Below are positions 10,421 through 30,389 of a DNA stretch of 64,000 nt, piece after piece. The translations under genes and the position numbers were made by a program. Numbering within the stretch: position 1 is the stretch's first letter; each line of letters begins with the position of its first letter. Below the pieces are notes generated by a model that was not told the DNA's origin, did not search any database, and saw nothing but the letters and a program-made list of their open reading frames with translations. This stretch comes from a bacterium (GTDB lineage: Bacteria > Armatimonadota > Zipacnadia > Zipacnadales > UBA11051): assembly GCA_021372615.1 (NCBI GenBank), contig JAJFUB010000039.1, positions 1 through 64,000 of the forward strand, in the 5' to 3' direction.

Positions 10421-12511
10421 CTACAGGATCTCCAGCGCCTTGGCGGCGATATGCTCGCCCGTCAGGCCGAAGAACTTCATCAGTTCCCACGGCTGCCCGG
10501 ACTCGCCGAAGGTGTCCTGGACGCCAACCATGCGGAGCTTGACCGGCCGCGCCACATCGCCCTGGGCGATGACGCCGGCAACGAGGTTGCCGAAGCCGCC
10601 GACCTGGTGCTCCTCGGCGGTGACGATGATCCCGCAGTCGTTGGCTGCCGCCAGGATCGCAGCCCGGTCAATTGGCTTGACCGTGTGCACGTTGACGATG
10701 CGGGTCTCGATCCCCCGCTCCTCCTTGAGGATGTAGGCCGCGCGCATGGCCTCAGGCACCATCGGACCGCAGGCGATGATCGCAAGGGCCTCGTTTTCGG
10801 CCTTGTAGTCTGAGGCCAGGACCGTCTCAAAGGCGTCGGCGAAGTTCTCCTGCGCCCCGCGGAAGCGGATGACGTTCGCCTGGCCGTACTCGAACGGTGT
10901 GCCGTCGTTGGTGACCAGCGGCGTGGCCTCACGGGCGAAACGCACGACGCCCGGTCCCGGGACCTCGGCGATGGCCAGCGTGGCCTTCTCGGCTTCCTTG
11001 GAGTCGCACGGCACGATCATGTGGAACCGGGGGATGCAGGTGACGACGCTGATCTCCTCCAGCGCCTGGTGGGTCGCCCCGTCAGGCCCCACCGAGATGC
11101 CGCCATGGGCGTCGGCGACTTTGACGTTGTAGTCGTTGTACGCGCAGGTCGTGCGGAGCTGGTCCCAGTTCCGGCCGGTGATGAACACGCCGTACGAGCC
11201 GATCCAGCCGATCTTGCCTTCCTTGGCGAACCCGGCAGCCACCACCGTCATGTTTTGTTCCTGGATGCCCATGCTGAAGAAGCGCTTGAGGCGCTCCTCG
11301 TCCGTAGTCTTGCCATCGGGCTTGAAGAAGTAGTCCATCCGGATGGAAGAGGTGATGTCGGCGCCAAAGCCCACCACATCGTCCCGGCCGCTGAGCTTGG
11401 CCGCGCCCCAGCCGAAGCCGTTGCGGGTGGCGTCCATCTTGCAGTGCATGTCGGCGGCCTTGTTCCACCAGTAGTCCCGGCCGAACTTCGGCATCATGCC
11501 ATCTACCTTGGCATCCACGAAGGCCTGATACTTCTCGACGATGCCCATGAGCTGCGCGATGCGCTCCCGGGACATCTCCTCCTCGGCGTCGAGACAGTCC
11601 ACGCAGGCAAAGATGGACTCGGCGCCCTCCTTGAGGCCGTCCTTGGGCGGCACGCCGTGATAGCCGCACACGTTCTCGCAGAAACCGACCCCTTTGCCCT
11701 TGATCGTGTGGGCGATGATGCAGGTGGGCTTGTCTTTGACCGTCTCGGCCCTGGCCAGGGCCTTGAGGATCTGCTCCATGTCGTGGCCGTCAATCTCCAG
11801 CACGTGCCAACCGAAGGCCTCAAACTTCTCCTTCACGGGCGCAACTTCCATGACCTCGGTCGTGGTCCCGTCAATCTGCAACTGGTTGCGGTCCACGATG
11901 GCGCACAGGTTATCCAGTTTGTAGTGGGCCGCCGCCATCGCCGTCTCCCACATCGAGCCCTCATCCAGCTCTCCGTCACCCAGAAGCGCGTAGACCCGGT
12001 AGCTCTTGCCGTCCAGCTTGGCGTTCATGGCACAGCCCTGCGCCACGCCGAAGCCCTGTCCCAGCGAGCCGGAGGACAACTCCACCCCCGGTACCTTGAA
12101 CCGGTTCGGGTGCCCTTCGAAGCCCGACCCCAGCCGCCGCAGCAGCACGGTCTGCTCAATGCCGGACACGTTCTCGAGGCCCGGCACCGGCTCGCCGTTG
12201 AAGGTCACTTTGCGGTCGTCGAAGTACCCCGCGAAGGCCAGAGCCACGTACAGGGCCGGCGCCTTGTGGCCGGTGGACCAGAGGATTCGGTCGCGGTCAG
12301 GCCACTCCGGGTTGCGCGGGTCGTGCTTCGCGTGTTTGAGGTATAGGGCCGCGGCCACATCCATGATGGACAGCGTGCCACCGCTGTGCCCGGACCCGGC
12401 AGCGGTGATGGCCATCATGTTCCAGCAGCGCATCTGCCGAGCCTGGTCCGCCAGCTCGTCGAGCGAGAAGTCCCTCCGCGTACTTCCCGTCTGCGAATCG
12501 ACAATCGCCAT
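10421..12511 (-). CDS. tkt: transketolase
   Basis: A 696-residue thiamine-diphosphate enzyme moving two-carbon ketol units between sugar phosphates in the non-oxidative pentose phosphate pathway. Visible motifs: GSGHSGGTLS near residue 40, the TPP/Mg motif LLGDGELDEGS...IVDRNQLQ around 175-205, and the pyrimidine-domain FFSMGIQEQNM near 395. The N-terminus (GHSGG rather than the classical GHPGAPMG) resembles the archaeal-type split transketolases, here present as one chain. Start ATG at 12511; stop is followed by a palindrome. Confidence 0.9.
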   Translation of the reverse strand: MAIVDSQTGSTRRDFSLDELADQARQMRCWNMMAITAAGSGHSGGTLSIMDVAAALYLKHAKHDPRNPEWPDRDRILWSTGHKAPALYVALAFAGYFDDRKVTFNGEPVPGLENVSGIEQTVLLRRLGSGFEGHPNRFKVPGVELSSGSLGQGFGVAQGCAMNAKLDGKSYRVYALLGDGELDEGSMWETAMAAAHYKLDNLCAIVDRNQLQIDGTTTEVMEVAPVKEKFEAFGWHVLEIDGHDMEQILKALARAETVKDKPTCIIAHTIKGKGVGFCENVCGYHGVPPKDGLKEGAESIFACVDCLDAEEEMSRERIAQLMGIVEKYQAFVDAKVDGMMPKFGRDYWWNKAADMHCKMDATRNGFGWGAAKLSGRDDVVGFGADITSSIRMDYFFKPDGKTTDEERLKRFFSMGIQEQNMTVVAAGFAKEGKIGWIGSYGVFITGRNWDQLRTTCAYNDYNVKVADAHGGISVGPDGATHQALEEISVVTCIPRFHMIVPCDSKEAEKATLAIAEVPGPGVVRFAREATPLVTNDGTPFEYGQANVIRFRGAQENFADAFETVLASDYKAENEALAIIACGPMVPEAMRAAYILKEERGIETRIVNVHTVKPIDRAAILAAANDCGIIVTAEEHQVGGFGNLVAGVIAQGDVARPVKLRMVGVQDTFGESGQPWELMKFFGLTGEHIAAKALEIL

Positions 12512-19050: not shown

Positions 19051-19068
19051 CCGCGTCGTTGATGCACA

Positions 19069-19094
19069 GATCGCGGTCGGTGACCGCTCCCACA
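19069..19094 (+). repeat. single arm of the TGTGGGAG palindrome family
   Basis: One arm of the repeat found in the rluD-like gene (orientation of its right arm), lying between the HgdB-like gene and the PTTPA-repeat protein. No second arm is present here. Confidence 0.75.
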
Positions 19095-19124
19095 TACACG
19101 TCGCTGAAATCTGAGGTGAACATG

Positions 19125-20075
19125 ATGACCAAGCACCTGAGCACCCTCGCAGTCGCGCTCCTGTTGGCCTCCGTCGCCCTCGCCCAGCAGCCGGCCACGC
19201 TGACCGGCACTATCACCTTCCGCAGCGGCGAGACGCTCAGCGGCGTCATCAAGGCCGCCGACCTGGGCATCATGGACGGCACGGGTGTGGGCACCGGCCT
19301 CAACGGCTTCGGGTCCATCAAGATCAATGTCAACGGCGTGAAGCAGACCATCCCGGCGACCAACATCGCCACCATTGAGGCCACCTGGGTGGACAAGAGC
19401 ACGCCCGAGGAGCCCAGTTGGGAGATCAGTGAGCTGCGGGTCACCACCGCCGACGGCAAGGCGCTCGTCGGCAAGCCGGACTGGCACATGCATGCCACCA
19501 ATGTCAGCGTGCAACTGGCCAGTGGCGAGACCAAGCGCGTCCACGCCTTCCCCCTCGGCGGCGCGGACTTCTCGCCCAATAACCTCATCGCCAAGATCCA
19601 GCTCGGGCCGGTGTCCACGGCGGCCACCGCCGCGACCGCAACGATAGCCCCGGCCCCGACGACGCCGGCTCCCACAGCGCCCGCACCGACCACTCCGGCA
19701 CCGACGACCCCGGCGCCGACGACGCCCGCACCGACCACTCCTGCGCCCCCGACACCGGCGCCGACGACGCCCGCACCGACCACGCCGGCCCCGGCGGCTA
19801 CCGTCGAGATCAACCCGACGCCTGCGCCGACCACCCCGGCCCCGACGACGCCCGCTCCGACCACTCCCGCGCCGACGGCGGTGGCCGCTGCCCCCGCCAC
19901 GCCGGTGCCTGCCGGCACTGTCTCGGCGGTCGTCGCGGCCCAGGCGACCAAGGCCCGCCCCGGCGAGCCGATGGTCATCAAGGTCCCGATTGCCGGCACG
20001 AACAAGGTCGTCAACATCCTGCTGTATGTCAACATCACCGAGGAGGGCATCGAGGTCATGCCCCCGGCGCAGTAG
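19125..20075 (+). CDS. secreted protein with a PTTPA-repeat stalk
   Basis: About 316 residues. A signal peptide (MTKHLSTLAVALLLASVALA) leads to an N-terminal beta-rich domain (about 22-170) that resembles the pattern of small SH3-like or RNA/glycan-binding beta domains but is not assigned. Next is a proline/threonine/alanine stretch (about 180-260) of repeated APTTP units, then a C-terminal globular segment ending EEGIEVMPPAQ. Such Pro/Thr stalks are often extended, surface-exposed and O-glycosylated. GAGGTG sits 6 bases before the ATG at 19125; ATG at 19122 is an alternative. Function unknown. Confidence 0.8.
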   Translation: MTKHLSTLAVALLLASVALAQQPATLTGTITFRSGETLSGVIKAADLGIMDGTGVGTGLNGFGSIKINVNGVKQTIPATNIATIEATWVDKSTPEEPSWEISELRVTTADGKALVGKPDWHMHATNVSVQLASGETKRVHAFPLGGADFSPNNLIAKIQLGPVSTAATAATATIAPAPTTPAPTAPAPTTPAPTTPAPTTPAPTTPAPPTPAPTTPAPTTPAPAATVEINPTPAPTTPAPTTPAPTTPAPTAVAAAPATPVPAGTVSAVVAAQATKARPGEPMVIKVPIAGTNKVVNILLYVNITEEGIEVMPPAQ

Positions 20076-20130: not shown

Positions 20131-20170
20131 GTCTTCAGAGCCACTCGACTAGCAACGGAGAATGAGCTGC

Positions 20171-21385
20171 ATGTCGCCCAAGGCACAACTCGCCGAACTA
20201 CTCTCGCCGCCGCATCCGGTGGACATCGTCAGTGAAGAGGAACTGCTCGCCAAGCTCGAGCAGGGCCGCCCGCTGCGCATCAAGTACGGGGCCGACCCCA
20301 GCGCCCCGGACTTGCACCTGGGCCACAGCGTGCCCATGAGCCGCCTGCGCAAGTTTCAGGAACTCGGCCACACCATCGTCTTCATCATCGGCGACTTCAC
20401 CGCGCGCATCGGCGACCCGTCGGGCAAGTCCAAGACCCGCCCGATGCTCAGCACCGAGCAGGTGGATGCCAACGCGAAGACCTACGCGGCCCAGGTCGGG
20501 CAGATCCTCGACATCAACCGCTGCGAACTGCACTACAACAGCGAGTGGCTCGACGCGATGACCGTGGCCGACGTGCTGCGGCTCATGTCCCACTACACCG
20601 TGGCCCGGATGCTGGAACGCGATGACTTCGCCAAGCGCCTGCAGGAAGAGGCGCCGATCTCCGTCGTCGAGCTCATGTACCCGCTGATGCAGGCGTACGA
20701 CTCCGTGGCGATCAAGGCCGATGTGGAACTGGGGGGCACGGACCAACTGTTCAATTTCCTGGTGGGCCGCGACATCATGCGCGCCTACGGGCTGGAGCCG
20801 CAGGTCGTCATGACCTGGCCGCTGCTGGTGGGCACGGACGGCACCGACAAGATGAGCAAGTCGCTGGGCAACTACGTGGGCATCACCGACGCCCCCGGCG
20901 ACATGTACGGCAAGATCATGTCCATCCCCGACAGCGCCATGCCGATGTACTACTGGCTGCTGCTGGAGCAGGCGCCCGAGGCCGTGGACGAGATGGAGGC
21001 CCACCTGAAGTCCGGCGCGCTGCACCCGCGCGAGGCCAAGGCCCATCTGGCGCACCGCCTGGTGGGCCGCTACCACGGCGCCGACGCCGCCGATGCCGCT
21101 GCCGTAGAGTTTGACCGCATCTTCGCCCAGGGCGCGTTGCCCAGCGACATGCCCGACATCGTCCTGCCGCGCGAGGCCTTCGAGGACGGTAACGTCGGCC
21201 TGATCCAGGTGCTCGTTACCGCCGGCTTCGCGGCCAGCAACGGCGAAGCCCGCCGCCTGATCCGCGGCAAGGGCGTCAAGGTGGACGGTGAGGTCGTGGA
21301 CGACGAGATGGCTCGACTGGCGCTCAAGGGCGGGGAGACGGTGCAAGTGGGCAAGCGTCGCGTCGGGCGTGTAGTCATCGACTAG
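20171..21385 (+). CDS. tyrS: tyrosyl-tRNA synthetase
   Basis: A class I synthetase of 404 residues charging tRNA-Tyr. The HIGH-like motif is HLGH (49-52) in GADPSAPDLHLGHSVPM, KMSKS is at 227-231, and a C-terminal S4 RNA-binding domain begins near residue 340 (GLIQVLVTAGFAASNGEARRLIRGKGVKV). This is the TyrS branch with YGADPS/KMSKS found in many bacteria. ATG at 20171 is preferred, 10 bases after GGAG; ATG at 20162 is only one base away from it. Confidence 0.95.
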   Translation: MSPKAQLAELLSPPHPVDIVSEEELLAKLEQGRPLRIKYGADPSAPDLHLGHSVPMSRLRKFQELGHTIVFIIGDFTARIGDPSGKSKTRPMLSTEQVDANAKTYAAQVGQILDINRCELHYNSEWLDAMTVADVLRLMSHYTVARMLERDDFAKRLQEEAPISVVELMYPLMQAYDSVAIKADVELGGTDQLFNFLVGRDIMRAYGLEPQVVMTWPLLVGTDGTDKMSKSLGNYVGITDAPGDMYGKIMSIPDSAMPMYYWLLLEQAPEAVDEMEAHLKSGALHPREAKAHLAHRLVGRYHGADAADAAAVEFDRIFAQGALPSDMPDIVLPREAFEDGNVGLIQVLVTAGFAASNGEARRLIRGKGVKVDGEVVDDEMARLALKGGETVQVGKRRVGRVVID

Positions 21386-22995: not shown

Positions 22996-23319
22996 CTACG
23001 AGGGCGCCCCTGATGAGGGCGGCGGCGGCGGGGCCGGTGGTGTCGCCGCGGGGGCCTGGCCGGTCAGGGCCTGCTTGCGCAGTTCTTCCATCTGCTCCTC
23101 GATCTGCACGACCCGTCGCAGCAGCACATCAATCTGCCCGTCCACGAAGGCGCCCTGCTGCCGCAACTCCCGCGCTCTCTTCCCCACCTCGACCAACTGC
23201 CGCTCCAACTCGCTCTCCAGGTTGCCCAGTTGCGCCTGGAGGGACAACTGCTCGGCCCCGCTGGAGACGGCCGCAGCCGCCTGCCCCAGGGCCTCCCTGG
23301 CTTTGTCAAACAGGTTCAT
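22996..23319 (-). CDS. small coiled-coil protein
   Basis: A 107-residue hypothetical protein. Residues 1-30 (MNLFDKAREALGQAAAAVSSG) form an amphipathic helix, residues about 35-88 a Glu/Gln/Arg-rich coiled coil, and the tail is proline-rich (APPPPPSSG). No membrane segment, signal or enzyme motif is seen. It is convergent with the propeller lipoprotein and lies downstream of the TIR gene. The family is not recognised. Confidence 0.65.
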   Translation of the reverse strand: MNLFDKAREALGQAAAAVSSGAEQLSLQAQLGNLESELERQLVEVGKRARELRQQGAFVDGQIDVLLRRVVQIEEQMEELRKQALTGQAPAATPPAPPPPPSSGAPS

Positions 23320-23360: not shown

Positions 23361-24188
23361 CTAGAGGCCCTTCTTGTCTAGCTCGTGCTCAAGAGTGGCC
23401 ACACCGCGCTCGAAGTCCACTGACATGTCGATGCGCGTCTGCTGGTTCAGGATGATTGGCATCGGGCGGGACAAGCGCTTGGCTTGGATCACGAAGACCG
23501 GTATGCCTGCCTCCCGCGCGTAGATGTATTCCCCGGCTGGCCACTCAGTATCCCGCCATGCGTCGGTGACGATCGCCATGAAAGCAGCAGCGCCCTCGAT
23601 CTTCTCCTCGAGTTCGCGGTACAGAGCCGCGTGGAAATCGCGCTCGCTCGCCTGGTAGTCCCAGTAGGCGTAGCCCCGCCTACCTAGCACATCCCTCAAC
23701 TGCACAACGAAGTCGCTGTCTGAGCGAGGGTAACTGAGGAACACATACCCTTTCGCCCGCATCGGCGCGTCTGGCATAGCAGCGCCGCCGGACGCGACTG
23801 TGCCCAACCGGTGCAGAACCGAGATGACGATGGGAACGGCGTCAGCGCCCGTCCTGACATCGACCCCCTGTATGCCCAGCAAGGCAGGCCATGGCGCACC
23901 CGCTGCCTGAAGGCCGTCCACATACAGTGGCAGTACCTGCTTAGCCAGACCGCGCGCCATGCCCAACTCCAACTGCAGCCATGGGGAGTTCGCCGAGGCA
24001 GCTGATATGAGCACGATGAATACCTGGCATTCGCGGATTGCCTCCGCAATCGCCGACGATAGCTCCACCCCGGCTGCCACACTATCGGTCAGCCAGACGG
24101 TGTAACCGCTGGCCCGCAGACCGTCACTCAGAGCACGCGCCATCCTTACATCATGCTGGCTGTAGCTGATGAACACATCATAGCGCAT
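23361..24188 (-). CDS. protein with two tandem TIR domains
   Basis: A 275-residue protein made almost entirely of two TIR domains. TIR1 (about 1-128) starts MRYDVFISYSQHD, with putative NADase glutamate Glu74 in SPWLQLE. TIR2 (about 147-275) starts KGYVFLSYPRSDSD, with Glu220 in EWPAGEYIYARE, and ends with a helical tail. Bacterial TIR domains commonly cleave NAD+ or make cyclic ADP-ribose signals in antiphage or immune-like systems, or act as scaffolds. There is no sensor domain and no recognisable partner gene nearby. The gene appears less GC-rich than its neighbours, a hint of transfer. ATG at 24188 chosen from TIR homology. Confidence 0.85.
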   Translation of the reverse strand: MRYDVFISYSQHDVRMARALSDGLRASGYTVWLTDSVAAGVELSSAIAEAIRECQVFIVLISAASANSPWLQLELGMARGLAKQVLPLYVDGLQAAGAPWPALLGIQGVDVRTGADAVPIVISVLHRLGTVASGGAAMPDAPMRAKGYVFLSYPRSDSDFVVQLRDVLGRRGYAYWDYQASERDFHAALYRELEEKIEGAAAFMAIVTDAWRDTEWPAGEYIYAREAGIPVFVIQAKRLSRPMPIILNQQTRIDMSVDFERGVATLEHELDKKGL

Positions 24189-24304
24189 CGCATGCCCGCC
24201 TTCTGTACTCGGCCAGCCGTGACCCGCTGCTGTCTGTCTCGCAAGCTCCGCGCCCAGGACACGGTGGCGGACCCAGGCCACGACGTCAACTGGCCTTTCA
24301 TGGG

Positions 24305-27300
24305 TCACTCCACGCGCAACAGCCGCGTCTGCGGACCCGCCATCGGCACCTGCAGGTTCCTCACCTTTCGCCCCAGCACCTCGCCGGTCATCAGGTCCGT
24401 GACCGTCACCGGCTGCGGGAAGCTCAGCGTCTCCGTCCGCGCCGTGGCTGAGTGTAGCCCCACCATGTTGCGGGACACGAAGCTCGGCTCGGCGCTCGGC
24501 ACGATGATCGGCACACCGGCGCCCTGGCAGATGCGCTTGAGCAACTCCGGCGACAGCAGCGGCCCGGAGGCGTAGATGCTGGTCCAGTTCGCCACCTTCC
24601 GCACCACCAACGCCGGCACGTCCGTCCCTTCCCAGACGGCCGCCGTCTCCGCCGGCTGCGCCTGCGCCACGAATACGGGCCCCAGCTTCATGTTCGGCTG
24701 CGGAACGGTCCCAAGGCCCTTCGTCAGCGGGTTCGTGTCGCTGAGGGCCATCCGCCAGTCCAGCGTCTCGGCGCGCTCGCTGAACTGCATCCCGGTCAGG
24801 TCGCCCATCGCCTGCACGCTCAGAGCCCCGTCGGTCACGTAGCCTGGAGCGTAGGTCCACACGAGCGTCCGCCCGTCGCGCTGCAGGTTCTGCCTGATCC
24901 ACTGCCGCTCGCTGTCGCTCATGTGGTAGCAGTTCAGGAAGAAGTAGCAGCGGAACTTCGGCAGCCGCCCGCTCACCACGTCATCAAGCAGGACCATGTC
25001 CCATGGCGCGCCCAGGCGCTCGAAGGTCATCTTCTGCTGGTACACCGCCCACAGGTTCACCTGGAAGTCGTGGCTCATGTACGCCGCGGGTGTGTCCTCA
25101 TCCACCACAACCGCCACACCGTTGGGGTCCGGCCCGCGGTCGGGCCACGTGACCCACTGCTGCCCGATCTCCCGCAGCTTCCCGATGACCCGCCCCTGCC
25201 GTGCATCGCGCGCGATCCACCCGTTGCTGAAGTCATACCACTGCGTCGCCGAGCCCTTGGCCGTGGCGTTGGCGAAGGCCCGCTCGAGCTGGCTGACCGT
25301 GCCGCCCAGACCGTCGGGCGAACCGTGCGCCCGCTGGTTGGCCTCCGTCACCAGGTGGGTCCGCAGGTCCGCCTGCAGCACCCACAGCTTGTCATGGGCG
25401 AGCACCGAGCCGATGGGGCTCATCACCGTGTACGACTCTCCCACCCCGCGCGCCGCATAGTCGAACGGCGACATCAGGAAGTCGCACAGGGGCGAGTTGA
25501 GCAGGCGCGACAGCGCATAGTGCCCCGAGTCGCCCGCCCGGCGCGCCCCGCTGAGCATCGTCACCGTGTACCCGTAGTACGTGCCGCACAGCGCCCGCGG
25601 CTGCACCTGCTTGATGCTACGGAACACATGCTCGATGCCGTCCACCATGACGTCCTGGTAGAAGCGGTAGAAGTCAATGACATAGCCCGACTTGCCCGGG
25701 TCGCGGAACGCCAGGTGATCCGCCCCGTCGCGCTGCGCGACAGAGGGCACCTGCACGGCCTCGAAGCTGATCTCCGGCATGGCCCACGCCTGCCCCAGCT
25801 TCGCCACGTCCCCGCCGTACCGGCGGCGTGTCCACTCGCGGAACGCCTCCTGCATGGGCGCGCTGTAGTCGGTCGGCGAGAAGCCGCCCACCGAGCCCCA
25901 GTGCTGCCACTCCCAGCTCACGCCGTCACATGGCTGGTAGCCGATGACGCGCCCGCCCCACGGCGCCTTCATGCAGTGCTCCGTGAAGCGCCTGACGGCC
26001 ACGGCATACGCCTCGCGCCAACGCACCGACGCCAGGGAGATGATCTTTCCTGTGGAGCCGTAGATGCCGACCTTGTCACTGCCCTCGGCATCGCGGCATA
26101 GCTCCTCGGGATGCGCCTCGATCCAGAAGCGCTGGCTGAGGCCGGACACGTCGTAGGTGGGGATGATGACCGCCTGCGGGTCGTACGTGAGCAACTCCAG
26201 CACCCGGCGGTCCCACTCGCTGTAGTCGAACTGGTCGGGTCCCTTCCAGCCGATGTCGCCGGCGTCCACCTCGTACAGGTGCAGGCCCGCGTTCTGCGCC
26301 ATGTTCGTGATCCGCGTGGCGCCGACGTTGATCTCCAGGTAGTGCATGAACGAGTTCGGCTGCCCGTTGAGGAACAGCGTGGGCAGGCCGTTATGCCGCC
26401 GGATCTCGGCACGCACCGGCGCCTCCGGCTGCGTCGCCGCAGTGACGTTGACCGACCCGATGATGATGCCGTCGCGCCCCGCGTAGCCCGTGTAGGGGTA
26501 CCCCAGGGCCACCTCGTACTTGCCGGCCGTCATGAAGCGCGAGAGCGTGAGTGTGACCGGGCCCACGCGTGTCGGCTGTGCCACCCCTCCCTGCGCGGGC
26601 TCGACGCCGCGTGTCAGCACGGTCTTACCGTCCTGCAGCAGCGCGGACCGCGCCGGGAACCTGCCGGCGGCCAGCGGCACGCGGTCCAGCACGACCGCCG
26701 CCGTGAGCTGCCCCCCGGCCGCGACCTGCGCCGGCAGCGTCACCTGCACGGCCTTGAGCTGCTCGCGCGGGCCGAAGTACCTGTACGGCAGGTGCCCCCA
26801 CGGGCCCTGCCCGGCAGCGGCGATGACCTTCACCGCCGGCCACACGCCGTCGTCGAACCCCGGCTGCTGCCAACCCTCCGCCGTCTGTCCCACGCCCTTC
26901 CACGAGCCGTCAGTGAGCACTTCCAGGTCCATCCCCGGCGCGCGCACCCACCCCTCCAGCACGAACCCTTCCGCGGCGGCCACGTCTTCCGCCTGTACCG
27001 CCAGCACGTTTCGTCCTGCCACGAGGAGCGGCTTGAGGTCCACCGTCTCGGGCGTGCGCCAGCCGTCGGTGTCGCTGCTCCCGGCGACTTCCTTCCCGTT
27101 CACATACAGCCGGTACTTGTCATCGGCCGTCACCTGGACGCGGGCCTCGGTCACTTGCGCCGGGGCCACCGGCAGCTCGAACGACTTGCGCAGGTACGCC
27201 GTGCAGTGGTCCTTGCCGTACGTCTCGGCGGCCCAGACCCAGCTCGCGCGCCAAGTCTCCAGTGGCGCGGAGCTGAGGTCCGGCTCTTCCTTCACGTGCG

Positions 27301-28231
27301 TCAGCCGGACGTTGTCCCACCAGGCTGTCACGCCCGCGCCGCGCACCTCGAGCGCAACATCCGCACTCGCCGCCCGCGAGGGCGCCACGAACGTGCCGGC
27401 CAAGTGGCGCTTGGCCTCTCCGGAGGCGCTCGCGAGGCGCACGATGCTGTCCACGGACAGCGGCCGGTCGAAGACATCGTAGAACACGAGCTTGACGGCC
27501 GCCTCGGCCTGCTTGTCAGACAGCTCCACATCGGCCTGGAGCGCAAAGCGCCCGAGCAGGTCCAGCGGCGCCCGCGTCACGAGGGCGGCCGTCTCCTTCT
27601 GCCCGGCGGGGATACGGACCTCACACGAGCGCGTGCCGTCGGTCACGCCACGGCCCGAGAGCTTCCACCATGCCCCCTTCGCGTACCAGTAGTCGGGCAT
27701 TCCCGGGCCCCGCGTGTCGTCCTCGAAGCTCTCGTTGGGCACGGCGCCGGGGACCTGAGTCAGGAACCGCACGTAGTCCAGGGCGACCTCGGCCCCCGCG
27801 GGGTTGAGCAGGTCCAGCCGCAGGCCTGTGACCGCCCCCTGCCAGCCGGGCAGGGCGCTCAGGTCCACACGGTACACCTGCGGGTCCGCCCCGGCCTGCA
27901 GCATGTGCCGCGCCATGCGCTGCTCCGAGAAGCCCTCGCCTGCGCTGTGCCAGAAGACCTCGCCCCCGCCGGTCATGCTGCTGCGCACGCGGAACTCCAG
28001 CATCGGGTAGCGCGCCGCGTCGAGGCTCAGCGGTGGCGAGGTGAGCATCGGGTCGTACTTCGTCACGCCCTGCAGGAACCCACCCTTCACCTCCGTGCTC
28101 TGGAAGTTGTCGGCCTTCCAGCCCTCCATGTCGCCATCCGTGTCAAAGCGCCACACCGGCGCCTGCGCGGACGCGGGCCAAGCGGCGAGAATGGTCAGCA
28201 GCAGGGCACAGCCAAGCAGGAAGGCTCTCAT
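24305..28231 (-). CDS. large secreted GH42-like glycoside hydrolase with carbohydrate-binding modules
   Basis: A 1308-residue exported protein. A signal peptide (about 1-22) is followed by two beta-sandwich carbohydrate-binding-like regions (about 25-165 and 170-310), a rhamnosidase-N-like galactose-binding fold (about 320-445), a further beta domain, and a TIM-barrel-like region (about 615-1000) resembling GH42 beta-galactosidases (WEWQHWGSVGG, FREWTRRRYGGDVAKLGQAW). A flavodoxin/GATase-like domain (about 1030-1150) follows, as in GH42. The catalytic glutamates are not certain. Last gene of the minus-strand sugar cluster; GGAG 8 bases before ATG 28231. Confidence 0.8.
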   Translation of the reverse strand: MRAFLLGCALLLTILAAWPASAQAPVWRFDTDGDMEGWKADNFQSTEVKGGFLQGVTKYDPMLTSPPLSLDAARYPMLEFRVRSSMTGGGEVFWHSAGEGFSEQRMARHMLQAGADPQVYRVDLSALPGWQGAVTGLRLDLLNPAGAEVALDYVRFLTQVPGAVPNESFEDDTRGPGMPDYWYAKGAWWKLSGRGVTDGTRSCEVRIPAGQKETAALVTRAPLDLLGRFALQADVELSDKQAEAAVKLVFYDVFDRPLSVDSIVRLASASGEAKRHLAGTFVAPSRAASADVALEVRGAGVTAWWDNVRLTHVKEEPDLSSAPLETWRASWVWAAETYGKDHCTAYLRKSFELPVAPAQVTEARVQVTADDKYRLYVNGKEVAGSSDTDGWRTPETVDLKPLLVAGRNVLAVQAEDVAAAEGFVLEGWVRAPGMDLEVLTDGSWKGVGQTAEGWQQPGFDDGVWPAVKVIAAAGQGPWGHLPYRYFGPREQLKAVQVTLPAQVAAGGQLTAAVVLDRVPLAAGRFPARSALLQDGKTVLTRGVEPAQGGVAQPTRVGPVTLTLSRFMTAGKYEVALGYPYTGYAGRDGIIIGSVNVTAATQPEAPVRAEIRRHNGLPTLFLNGQPNSFMHYLEINVGATRITNMAQNAGLHLYEVDAGDIGWKGPDQFDYSEWDRRVLELLTYDPQAVIIPTYDVSGLSQRFWIEAHPEELCRDAEGSDKVGIYGSTGKIISLASVRWREAYAVAVRRFTEHCMKAPWGGRVIGYQPCDGVSWEWQHWGSVGGFSPTDYSAPMQEAFREWTRRRYGGDVAKLGQAWAMPEISFEAVQVPSVAQRDGADHLAFRDPGKSGYVIDFYRFYQDVMVDGIEHVFRSIKQVQPRALCGTYYGYTVTMLSGARRAGDSGHYALSRLLNSPLCDFLMSPFDYAARGVGESYTVMSPIGSVLAHDKLWVLQADLRTHLVTEANQRAHGSPDGLGGTVSQLERAFANATAKGSATQWYDFSNGWIARDARQGRVIGKLREIGQQWVTWPDRGPDPNGVAVVVDEDTPAAYMSHDFQVNLWAVYQQKMTFERLGAPWDMVLLDDVVSGRLPKFRCYFFLNCYHMSDSERQWIRQNLQRDGRTLVWTYAPGYVTDGALSVQAMGDLTGMQFSERAETLDWRMALSDTNPLTKGLGTVPQPNMKLGPVFVAQAQPAETAAVWEGTDVPALVVRKVANWTSIYASGPLLSPELLKRICQGAGVPIIVPSAEPSFVSRNMVGLHSATARTETLSFPQPVTVTDLMTGEVLGRKVRNLQVPMAGPQTRLLRVE

Positions 28232-28248
28232 CAGGTCATCTCCACGGT

Positions 28249-29493
28249 TCACGCACTGGCGATGGGGTACCGACCGTACTCATACGCCGCATCATAGGCC
28301 GCCACGATGTTCTCGGGCGGCGTCTGGGGCTGCACATTGTGTATGGGGCAGAACACGAAGCCGCCGCCGGGGGCGAAGAGTCGCACCCGCTCGGCCACCT
28401 CGGCCCGGACCTGTTCCGGCGTCCCGAACGGCAGTGTGGACTGCGTCTCGACCCCGCCGCCCCAGAAGGTCAGCCGGTCCCCCCACGTCGCCTTCAGCCA
28501 CGCCGGGGCCATGCCGGCCGCCGAGGTCTGCACCGGGTTGAGGGCATCCAGCCCGGCCTCGGCCATGTCCCCGATGATGCTCGTCATGCACCCGCACGAG
28601 TGCTCGAAGCTCTTCCACGTCGTGTGCGTGTGGATCCACTCGTAGTGTGCCTGCAGGCACGGCAGGTAGACCTCACGGAAGGTCTGGCGCGAGAAGAGCT
28701 CGGCCTTCTGGGTGCCGAAGTCCAGCCCCGAGATGACCACAGCATCTATGTCTTCGCCGATGGCCTCCCACATGAGCTGCAGGTTCCGCAGGCCCACTTC
28801 CGTCGCCAGGTCGAACAGCCCGCGCACGTAGCCCGGATCGCGCCCCAGCAGGCACAGGAAGTCGGGCATGGTGCCGATGTGGCGCGGCCCGAGCATCCCC
28901 CAGCAGTTCAGCACCAGCGCCTTGTCGGTGGTGCGGCGCAGCAGCGCTGCCCGCTGCGCCATGTGGGCCAGGTCCTCTTCAGACGCGATGGCGCTCTCGA
29001 ACTCCCGCGCCATGTCGGCCAGGGGCGGCGGCTCCCAGTCGAAGTTCCACGCCGTTTCGCCGAGGGTGTCGAAGTAGAAGCCCCCGCGCGGCATCTTGGC
29101 GGTGGGCACGCCGGAGGTGCTGCCGGGCGGCGTGAACAGCCAGTCCCCGTCGGGCGTCACCTGCACCTCGAACTCGCCGGGCATGAGCACCTCGCGCCCA
29201 TCCATCAGCCGCCACGGCTTCCAGTTCTCCCGCCGCAGCCCCATCGTCAGCACGGGCGGCTCGACGGGCAGGCAGTCCACGTGCAGCCGCTCCACCACAT
29301 CCATCTCCACCTCTCCCAGCATCTGGTAGGCGTCCACGACCTTGACGGGCCGCTCCTGCAGCCGCAGGTGCCGCCGCAGCTCATCGAGGGCCACGGCGGT
29401 GATGGAGGTGACGAAGCTGCCGCCCAGGTCGAGCGGCACACGGTCCGGCTCACGGTGGTCCAGGGCAGCCAACACCCGCTCGCGGCTGGTCAT
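28249..29493 (-). CDS. uroporphyrinogen decarboxylase-family (URO-D/MtaA-like) protein
   Basis: A 414-residue cytoplasmic TIM-barrel protein of the URO-D superfamily. It begins TSRERVLAALDHREPDRVPLDLGG, the usual opening of the divergent environmental URO-D clade, and has FEHSCGCM in the position where methyltransferase members (MtaA/MtbA type) bind zinc. Such proteins in sugar clusters are probably not haem enzymes; methyltransfer or demethylation is one guess. Start ATG at 29493 has GAGAGGAG 7 bases upstream. It sits between the pseudopilin and the GH42-like gene in the same orientation. Confidence 0.8.
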   Translation of the reverse strand: MTSRERVLAALDHREPDRVPLDLGGSFVTSITAVALDELRRHLRLQERPVKVVDAYQMLGEVEMDVVERLHVDCLPVEPPVLTMGLRRENWKPWRLMDGREVLMPGEFEVQVTPDGDWLFTPPGSTSGVPTAKMPRGGFYFDTLGETAWNFDWEPPPLADMAREFESAIASEEDLAHMAQRAALLRRTTDKALVLNCWGMLGPRHIGTMPDFLCLLGRDPGYVRGLFDLATEVGLRNLQLMWEAIGEDIDAVVISGLDFGTQKAELFSRQTFREVYLPCLQAHYEWIHTHTTWKSFEHSCGCMTSIIGDMAEAGLDALNPVQTSAAGMAPAWLKATWGDRLTFWGGGVETQSTLPFGTPEQVRAEVAERVRLFAPGGGFVFCPIHNVQPQTPPENIVAAYDAAYEYGRYPIASA

Positions 29494-29598: not shown

Positions 29599-30300
29599 TT
29601 AGTTGGCCATCCAGTAGCCGGTCTGGTCGCCGCTCAGCGTAGACCCGGTGGCCACGATCGGCCCCAGCGCCGCGTCCTTGCAGCCCAGCCACTTGCTGTG
29701 GCCGTCGAGGAACGCGTAGTTCCCGCCGTTGTTGTGCCACTCCGACCACCAGAAGTACTGCGACCAGCTCGTGTTGCCGGAGTAGGCGTTCACGAACCAG
29801 TTCTCCAGGTACCCCGTCGGCGTCCGCGTCGAGTCGATCTTGCCGATGTCGCCCAGAATGATCTTCTGCGACACGTTCGAGAAGACCGCCAAGCGCTGCC
29901 CGCCGGCTACGCCGTTGTACGCGTACTGGGGGAGCAGCTTGCCTCCCGACGAGGTCAGATTGCCCTGGCTCGGGCACGACAGCACCTGCGTGTTCTTCAG
30001 ATAGGGCTCGACGCCCTCCATCCAGAAGTGGCGGTCATTGGCCGCCGAGTTGTCACGGTCGTACCACACGCTTGGGTACGCAGCGCTGACGACTCGGTAG
30101 TACGGCAGCGTTTCGTCATAGTCCTGCGCGTACTGTAGTACCCCCAGGATGAGCTGCTTGGTGTTGCTCAAGCAGCTTGACTGCCGGGCCTTCTCCCGCG
30201 CCTTCGCGAACACGGGAAACAGGATCGCGGCCAGGATCGCGATGATCGCGATGACGACCAGTAACTCAATCAGCGTAAACCCACGTCGCGTCATTGGCAT
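29599..30300 (-). CDS. DUF1559-type pseudopilin (type II secretion/pilin-like)
   Basis: A 233-residue prepilin-like protein. A short basic leader (MPMTRRG) is followed by [20 protein letters not shown], the type IV prepilin cleavage site with Glu5 and a hydrophobic helix, then [19 protein letters not shown] shared with the other three copies. The C-terminal domain ends with a [10 protein letters not shown]-like region and the DGHSKW motif typical of the H-X9-DG group. A prepilin peptidase would cleave before Phe; it may then join a pseudopilus or be surface displayed. AGGAG 5 bases before ATG 30300. Downstream of the SGNH gene. Confidence 0.88.
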
Positions 30301-30389
30301 GCACACTCCTATGTGGTGTTCCCCCAGCACAACGGACTCAACTCACGACGCCTTCCCCCGCCACGGCATTCCCGCAATTGCCCGGTGCC

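What the first reader, a model, noticed from the sequence alone, without database searches (positions are those of the whole stretch)
23361..24188. Stand-alone protein with two TIR domains
Both halves are TIR-like and each keeps a glutamate in the usual NADase position (Glu74, Glu220), which is rare as a whole-protein design. No sensor is attached, and the gene seems less GC-rich than its neighbours, suggesting transfer. It could be an NAD-consuming effector or a TIR-TIR scaffold.
Basis: partly seen in the sequence, partly recalled or inferred. Interest (0 to 1): 0.62.

Follow-up and report, generated by a model that had tools for sequence, protein, structure and literature searches.

The report
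Rare two-TIR protein with swapped half
This gene makes a small bacterial protein built only from two immune-type TIR domains, one almost constant and one that has been swapped between relatives; it belongs to a rare family found in three bacterial phyla that probably cleaves NAD+, and no description of such a family was found.

Summary
ORF 24188..23361 (-) encodes 275 aa with two Pfam TIR_2 domains and nothing else. Glu74 and Glu220 align with the catalytic Glu of solved TIR NADases. GC3 (0.745) is the lowest of 41 window genes (others 0.885 ± 0.033). It is not unique: 11 further two-TIR proteins were found, mostly in Anaerolineae, one in a Planctomycetaceae MAG, and none among the other 290 genomes searched in the window's phylum.

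The new point is that the halves evolve differently. The C-terminal TIR is a distinct, nearly constant subfamily (59% mean identity, invariant WxxxE, not found alone in the genomes searched). The N-terminal TIR averages 32%. In the window's own subclade it was exchanged: the C-terminal TIRs form one clade, while their N-terminal TIRs group with unrelated TIRs (one clade rejected, AU p = 1e-4). Most Anaerolineae copies sit beside BatA/vWA genes, others beside proA or topA. The window copy has no recognisable partner.

Best reading: an NADase-competent TIR pair, with a constant catalytic C-terminal TIR and an interchangeable N-terminal TIR that completes the head-to-tail site or provides recognition. 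Structure and motifs support competence. Activity, trigger and defence role are inferred.

The parts
23361..24188 (-). TIR-TIR gene, 275 aa, no other domain
   Evidence: start agrees with 11 homologues
23805..24188 (-). TIR1 (residues 1-128), the fast-evolving, exchanged N-terminal TIR
   Evidence: Pfam TIR_2; fold like the SPARTA TIR, Z 17.7, 132 aligned, 2.0 A; 23-32% identity to the TIR1 of other members; nearest relatives are TIRs outside the family
23751..23804 (-). linker (residues 129-146), low confidence in the model around 135-141
23364..23750 (-). TIR2 (residues 147-275), constant C-terminal TIR subfamily with noncanonical BB loop (WDYxxSxR[DN][YF]H)
   Evidence: Pfam TIR_2; model alone pLDDT 84.4, pTM 0.80; SPARTA TIR Z 18.8, 124 aligned, 2.0 A; 29 invariant residues of the family lie here
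23967..23969 (-). Glu74 codon, putative catalytic Glu of TIR1 (W70xxxE74)
23529..23531 (-). Glu220 codon, putative catalytic Glu of TIR2 (W216xxxE220), invariant in 11 of 11
24069..24071 (-). Gly40 codon, BB-loop glycine of TIR1, invariant in 12 of 12
24199..24203 (-). possible ribosome-binding site GAAGG, 10 nt before the ATG
   Evidence: read from the sequence; inference

Best explanation
The gene encodes a stand-alone pair of TIR domains. TIR2 is the constant, NADase-competent domain of a dedicated family. TIR1 is an interchangeable TIR that pairs with it in one chain. Known TIR NADases work only when two TIRs stack head to tail, because the active site spans both (BE interface). Fusing two TIRs supplies this partner permanently, so that a further trigger (protein-protein contact through TIR1, or crowding into a longer strand) could switch on NAD+ cleavage by TIR2, and possibly by TIR1, whose Glu is also kept. 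The most likely outcome is NAD+ depletion or an ADP-ribose-type signal under stress or phage attack. Shown here: two TIR folds, conserved Glu and Trp positions, unequal constraint, exchange of TIR1, horizontal spread. Inferred: NADase activity, the intramolecular pairing, the trigger, the defence role.
For: Two TIR_2 domains. Both model as TIR, closest to the SPARTA TIR domain, a known NADase. Glu74 and Glu220 align with the catalytic Glu of SPARTA, AbTir and BtTir. W216xxxE220 invariant in all 11 complete members; Glu74 in 11 of 12. TIR2 59% and TIR1 32% mean identity. The TIR2 profile shows a clear gap between two-TIR members (220 and 178 bits) and every other TIR (52 bits or less) in 199 genomes, so TIR2 was always found with a TIR1. 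Clade-B TIR1s rejected as one clade, p-AU 0.0001, while TIR2s form one. Composite head-to-tail active site in TIR NADases: PMC11364022, PMC12847820, PMC11156904.
Against: No activity data. In SpbK the catalytic TIR uses its own BB loop against the next TIR, and the BB loop of TIR2 lacks the usual glycine pattern, so its geometry may differ. Orientation of the two domains in the model was not examined (no coordinates available), so intramolecular pairing is untested. No defence gene among nine neighbours. Stable placement in housekeeping-type operons of Anaerolineae fits a physiological role as well as defence.
Confidence: 0.45

Rival explanations
1. TIR adaptor or modulator: TIR1 resembles the TIR effectors of its host and docks into their assemblies, while TIR2 caps, nucleates or silences the strand. 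The protein regulates other TIR proteins and need not be the enzyme.
For: The host genomes carry many TIR proteins (12 in G000; 58 matches in G292). In G291, TIR1 groups with TIRs of its own genome (L046, L048, L050) within a 10-row set supported 100/98. TIR1 exchange would fit matching to local TIR partners.
Against: Window TIR1 does not group with a TIR of its own genome. The Glu is kept in both domains, which a pure scaffold would not need.
Confidence: 0.22
2. Physiological, non-defence role in Anaerolineae: a NAD+/ADP-ribose-linked regulator of the BatA/vWA membrane system, later passed to other phyla as a solitary gene.
For: Six of nine Anaerolineae-type loci lie directly beside BatA- and/or vWA-type genes: L042, L128, L129, L130, L131, L132; composition of several copies matches their hosts.
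Against: L096, L125 and L126 lie elsewhere (proA or topA side); the window, L041 and L127 copies have no such neighbours. Adjacent vWA-MoxR genes with TIR effectors are themselves a known theme of conflict systems (PMC7159879).
Confidence: 0.2
3. An ordinary TIR NADase in which one TIR is a decayed duplicate of the other.
For: The TIR1 Trp of WxxxE is lost in 9 of 12 members and the Glu is Asp in one; TIR1 evolves faster.
Against: TIR1 is not a copy of TIR2: 26% identity within the window protein, and TIR1s group with other TIRs. Glu and BB-loop Gly are held in TIR1 across all but one member, which decay would not do.
Confidence: 0.13

Closest known systems
SPARTA TIR (TIR-APAZ of short prokaryotic Argonaute systems)
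   Same: Best fold match of both TIRs (Z 17.7 and 18.8) and top profile match; Glu on helix alphaC; active site across two TIRs (PMC11156904)
   Different: No APAZ domain; no Argonaute among the neighbours; both TIRs in one chain, whereas SPARTA brings TIRs together by tetramerisation
AbTir, BtTir, PdTir and SARM1 TIR NADases
   Same: Fold and WxxxE position
   Different: Single TIR with a separate regulatory region; here the only other domain is a second TIR
SpbK (Bacillus subtilis anti-phage TIR)
   Same: TIR NADase needing head-to-tail TIR contacts (PMC12847820)
   Different: SpbK senses the phage portal by an N-terminal non-TIR domain; here a TIR occupies that position
Thoeris ThsB / ThcB4
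   Same: Weak to moderate TIR-domain matches (42 bits)
   Different: Far under the ThcB4 cut-off of 220 bits; no ThsA-like partner nearby
Eukaryotic tandem-TIR proteins (mollusc Toll receptors, PMC4929906; Dictyostelium TirE, PMC13142454)
   Same: Two TIRs in tandem
   Different: Receptor or repeat-domain proteins of eukaryotes; not stand-alone, and no sequence relation was tested
MoxR-vWA ternary conflict systems with TIR effectors (PMC7159879)
   Same: TIR genes beside vWA genes in six Anaerolineae loci
   Different: BatA-type vWA genes here; the paper mentions neither BatA nor DUF58; the window copy has no such context

Membership tests
TIR domain superfamily (Pfam TIR_2) | profile match over the curated cut-off, in both halves | tested here: met
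   74 and 47 bits against a cut-off of 28
TIR domain superfamily (Pfam TIR_2) | TIR fold of both halves | tested here: met
   TIR1 Z 17.7; TIR2 Z 14.3 to RRS1; TIR2 alone Z 18.8
TIR NADase | catalytic Glu on helix alphaC | tested here: met
   E74 and E220 aligned with the known catalytic Glu; E220 lies in helix 70-80 of the TIR2 model
TIR NADase | NAD+ cleavage | not testable with these tools
   needs an assay
TIR NADase | head-to-tail BE assembly forming the active site | not testable with these tools
   no coordinates or multimer modelling available
Thoeris (ThsB/ThcB4) | equivalog score for ThcB4 | tested here: not met
   42.4 bits, cut-off 220
Thoeris (ThsB/ThcB4) | adjacent ThsA-type effector gene | tested here: not met
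   none among the neighbours from 14437 to 34523 tested; the rest of the genome was not searched for it
SPARTA | APAZ domain and adjacent short Argonaute | tested here: not met
   no APAZ in the protein, no defence family among nine neighbours
CBASS/Pycsar TIR effectors (TIR-SAVED, TIR-STING) | ligand-binding SAVED or STING domain in the same chain | tested here: not met
   only the TIR part of such models matches; the whole 275 aa is accounted for by two TIRs
Two-TIR family described here | stand-alone 270-300 aa chain, any TIR followed by a TIR2-type domain with WDYxxSxR and WxxxE | tested here: met
   12 members, one of them truncated

The most novel reading that the evidence does not exclude
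A previously undescribed bacterial TIR-TIR family in which a dedicated catalytic TIR is always paired in the same chain with a second TIR that is exchanged between lineages, so that a TIR itself plays the recognition or assembly part normally played by a sensor domain.
Probability: 0.3. Interest if true: 0.75.

Novelty: new variant of a known kind. Interest (0 to 1): 0.5.

Why it matters
TIR NADases are thought to be controlled by bringing TIRs together. A minimal protein that carries both partners in one chain, with one partner constant and the other exchanged, would let one ask directly which TIR supplies the catalytic Glu, which supplies the second face of the site, and whether a TIR can act as the recognition module. 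With two glutamates to mutate separately, the roles of the two TIRs can be told apart in a way that homo-oligomeric systems do not allow.

Tried and rejected
Unique chance architecture: rejected, 11 further members found. Recent internal duplication: rejected, TIR1 and TIR2 of the window share 26% and TIR1 groups with other TIRs. Phage or plasmid gene: no match in phages, no full-length match in plasmids (best 52% coverage, 29-33% identity), none in viral contigs with a protein or two profiles; the structure library of viral proteins gave only deoxyribosyltransferase-like and TIR-like folds. Partner gene in the window: none of nine neighbours matches a defence family. My first thought that TIR1 donates a BB loop to the active site of TIR2 was dropped: in SpbK the Glu and the BB loop used belong to the same protomer and the neighbour gives the betaD/betaE/alphaE side (PMC12847820), so which TIR plays which part is left open. 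Literature: no paper on a stand-alone bacterial TIR-TIR family was found among the open-access papers held, which does not exclude one in journals not held. ThcB4 was not found described in the held papers.

Full report
What is there. The minus-strand frame 24188..23361 encodes 275 residues. Pfam TIR_2 matches it twice, at 23847-24176 and 23394-23744 when the genome is searched. Nothing else was recognised in it. Residues 74 and 220 are glutamates. A GAAGG stretch lies 10 nt before the ATG. The longer 513-aa frame in the ORF list is an open frame upstream of the real start: homologues begin at the same place as the 24188 ATG.

Composition. Its GC is 0.618 and GC3 0.745. For 40 other genes picked in the window by length and codon-position GC the means are 0.673 and 0.885 with standard deviations 0.023 and 0.033. 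It has the lowest GC3 of all. This supports transfer but rests on the window only.

Distribution. No full-length relative was found in the other 290 genomes searched in the window's phylum with the protein or with TIR2 alone. A scan of about 85,000 species genomes with peptide patterns, which finds close relatives only, gave two: a Planctomycetaceae MAG (L041, 40% identity in the best segment) and an Anaerolineae MAG (L042, 35%). Profiles then found one further genome in the class of the latter (G1170) and eight more in the order of G1170, so that 9 of 121 genomes of that order hold one. In a sample of 400 genomes of the phylum of L042's genome and one of 392 of the phylum of L041's genome, only the source genome passed E 1e-30; that threshold may miss divergent members, as members of the later set scored 277-320 bits against 449-498 for those nearest the profile. 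Phage, plasmid and viral-contig searches gave no full-length relative.

Two halves, two histories. Over the complete members the mean pairwise identity is 32% in TIR1 and 59% in TIR2. Five invariant residues fall in TIR1 (M1, Y9, L24, W32, G40) and 29 in TIR2. TIR2 keeps W216xxxE220 and W211 in all 11; TIR1 keeps the Glu in 11 of 12 (Asp in one) but the Trp four residues before it in only 3 of 12, the window among them. TIR2 has an unusual BB-loop region, WDYxxSxR[DN][YF]H in nearly all, while TIR1 keeps the usual BB-loop glycine in 12 of 12. The tree of whole proteins puts the window with L041 (100/97) and both with L127 (100/99). In a tree of TIR1s with those TIRs, the three are not one clade (log-likelihood 54 lower when held together, p-AU 0.0001). 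L041's TIR1 falls within a set of 10 TIRs supported 100/98, including TIRs of its own genome, and L127's among Anaerolineae TIRs, more weakly. In a joint quick tree the TIR2s form one clade with SH-aLRT 100 and the clade-B TIR2s one with 97. The simplest reading is that the N-terminal TIR was replaced at least twice among three members while the C-terminal TIR stayed. Caution: window TIR1 is a long branch and its exact source is unsure; the outside TIRs were picked by similarity; a very fast TIR1 could mimic part of this, though 48% identity of L127's TIR1 to an outside TIR against 26% to its sister in the window is hard to get that way.

Structure. AlphaFold2 on four members gave pLDDT 77.7 and pTM 0.72. 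TIR1 matches the SPARTA TIR (Z 17.7, 132 aligned, 2.0 A), AbTir (15.6) and SARM1 (14.9); TIR2 matches RRS1 (14.3, 127 aligned, 2.8 A), SARM1 (13.0) and the related nucleotide N-glycosidases DNPH1/Rcl and BcmB (about 13). TIR2 alone with 11 rows gave pLDDT 84.4, pTM 0.80 and matched the SPARTA TIR at Z 18.8 (124 aligned, 2.0 A) and SARM1 at 15.4. Glu220 lies in the helix that follows the third strand, where the catalytic Glu of TIR NADases lies. Profile alignments place E220 on the Glu of BtTir's WTEYE and E74 on the SPARTA Glu. SPARTA lacks the Trp of WxxxE too and is active (PMC11156904), so loss of that Trp in most TIR1s does not by itself mean an inactive site.

Neighbourhood. In the window, the block from a radical-SAM-like gene (17274) through TyrRS (20162-21385) to a 107-aa gene (22996-23319) is conserved in G001, G002 and G004 of the same family, without TIR-TIR beside it; the glycosidase-like gene on the other side (24305-28252) lies elsewhere in relatives. 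So the gene sits at the edge of a conserved block. Neighbours are enzymes, a PD40 protein and a glycoside hydrolase; none of nine matches a defence family. In Anaerolineae, six copies lie beside BatA and/or vWA genes (L042, L128, L129, L130, L131, L132; Pfam on eight of the neighbours), with a DUF58 gene in L132; three lie beside proA or topA (L096, L125, L126; product names read from the sequence). L041 lies between EF-Ts-like and Tgt-like genes. There is no shared partner across the family.

Mechanism. All TIR NADases studied so far form their site between two TIRs stacked head to tail (PMC11364022, PMC12847820, PMC11156904). A two-TIR chain brings two in one molecule. Given constant TIR2 with the complete motif and exchanged TIR1, the reading I favour is TIR2 as enzyme and TIR1 as the exchangeable partner that completes the site or provides contact to a trigger. 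Evidence does not say which TIR plays which part, nor that the pairing is within one chain. A role in phage defence is plausible from the kind of domain and the patchy spread, but the Anaerolineae context also allows a physiological role.

Name of the host. The prepilin-like protein at 29599-30330 and gene content remind me of Armatimonadota; this is memory only.

Noticed in passing
L001, L002, L003, L005-L011, L013 (genome G000): The window's genome holds 11 other TIR proteins; several are fused to what look like NTPase, FtsK-like, HD-type and TPR regions (read from the sequence). None of them carries two TIR_2 matches.
   Followed up: partly
G292 (L042, L045, L047, L049, L051-L062): One Anaerolineae MAG of 6.6 Mb has 58 matches to the two-TIR profile at E 1e-10, an unusually large TIR set.
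   Followed up: no
L132:8615-9199: Copy in G1304 ends with a stop codon within TIR2, 91 bases before the contig end; either a broken copy or an assembly end effect.
   Followed up: no
L126:13584-16256: A further 891-aa frame close to the TIR-TIR gene of G1287 begins with a TIR-like stretch (YLGYVVSDGGFAAQLAADLKNRGVRVWIDSFEL).
   Followed up: no
window 19059-20075: Frame with long TPAPT repeats in its C-terminal half; the N-terminal part is conserved next to TyrRS in relatives.
   Followed up: no
window 22996-23319: A 107-aa coiled-coil-like protein without Pfam match; orthologue in G001 carries an added C-terminal zinc-ribbon-like CxxC stretch.
   Followed up: no
L096:9894-10337 and 10963-11409: Two similar proteins of about 148 aa of unknown function follow the TIR-TIR gene of G1170.
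   Followed up: no
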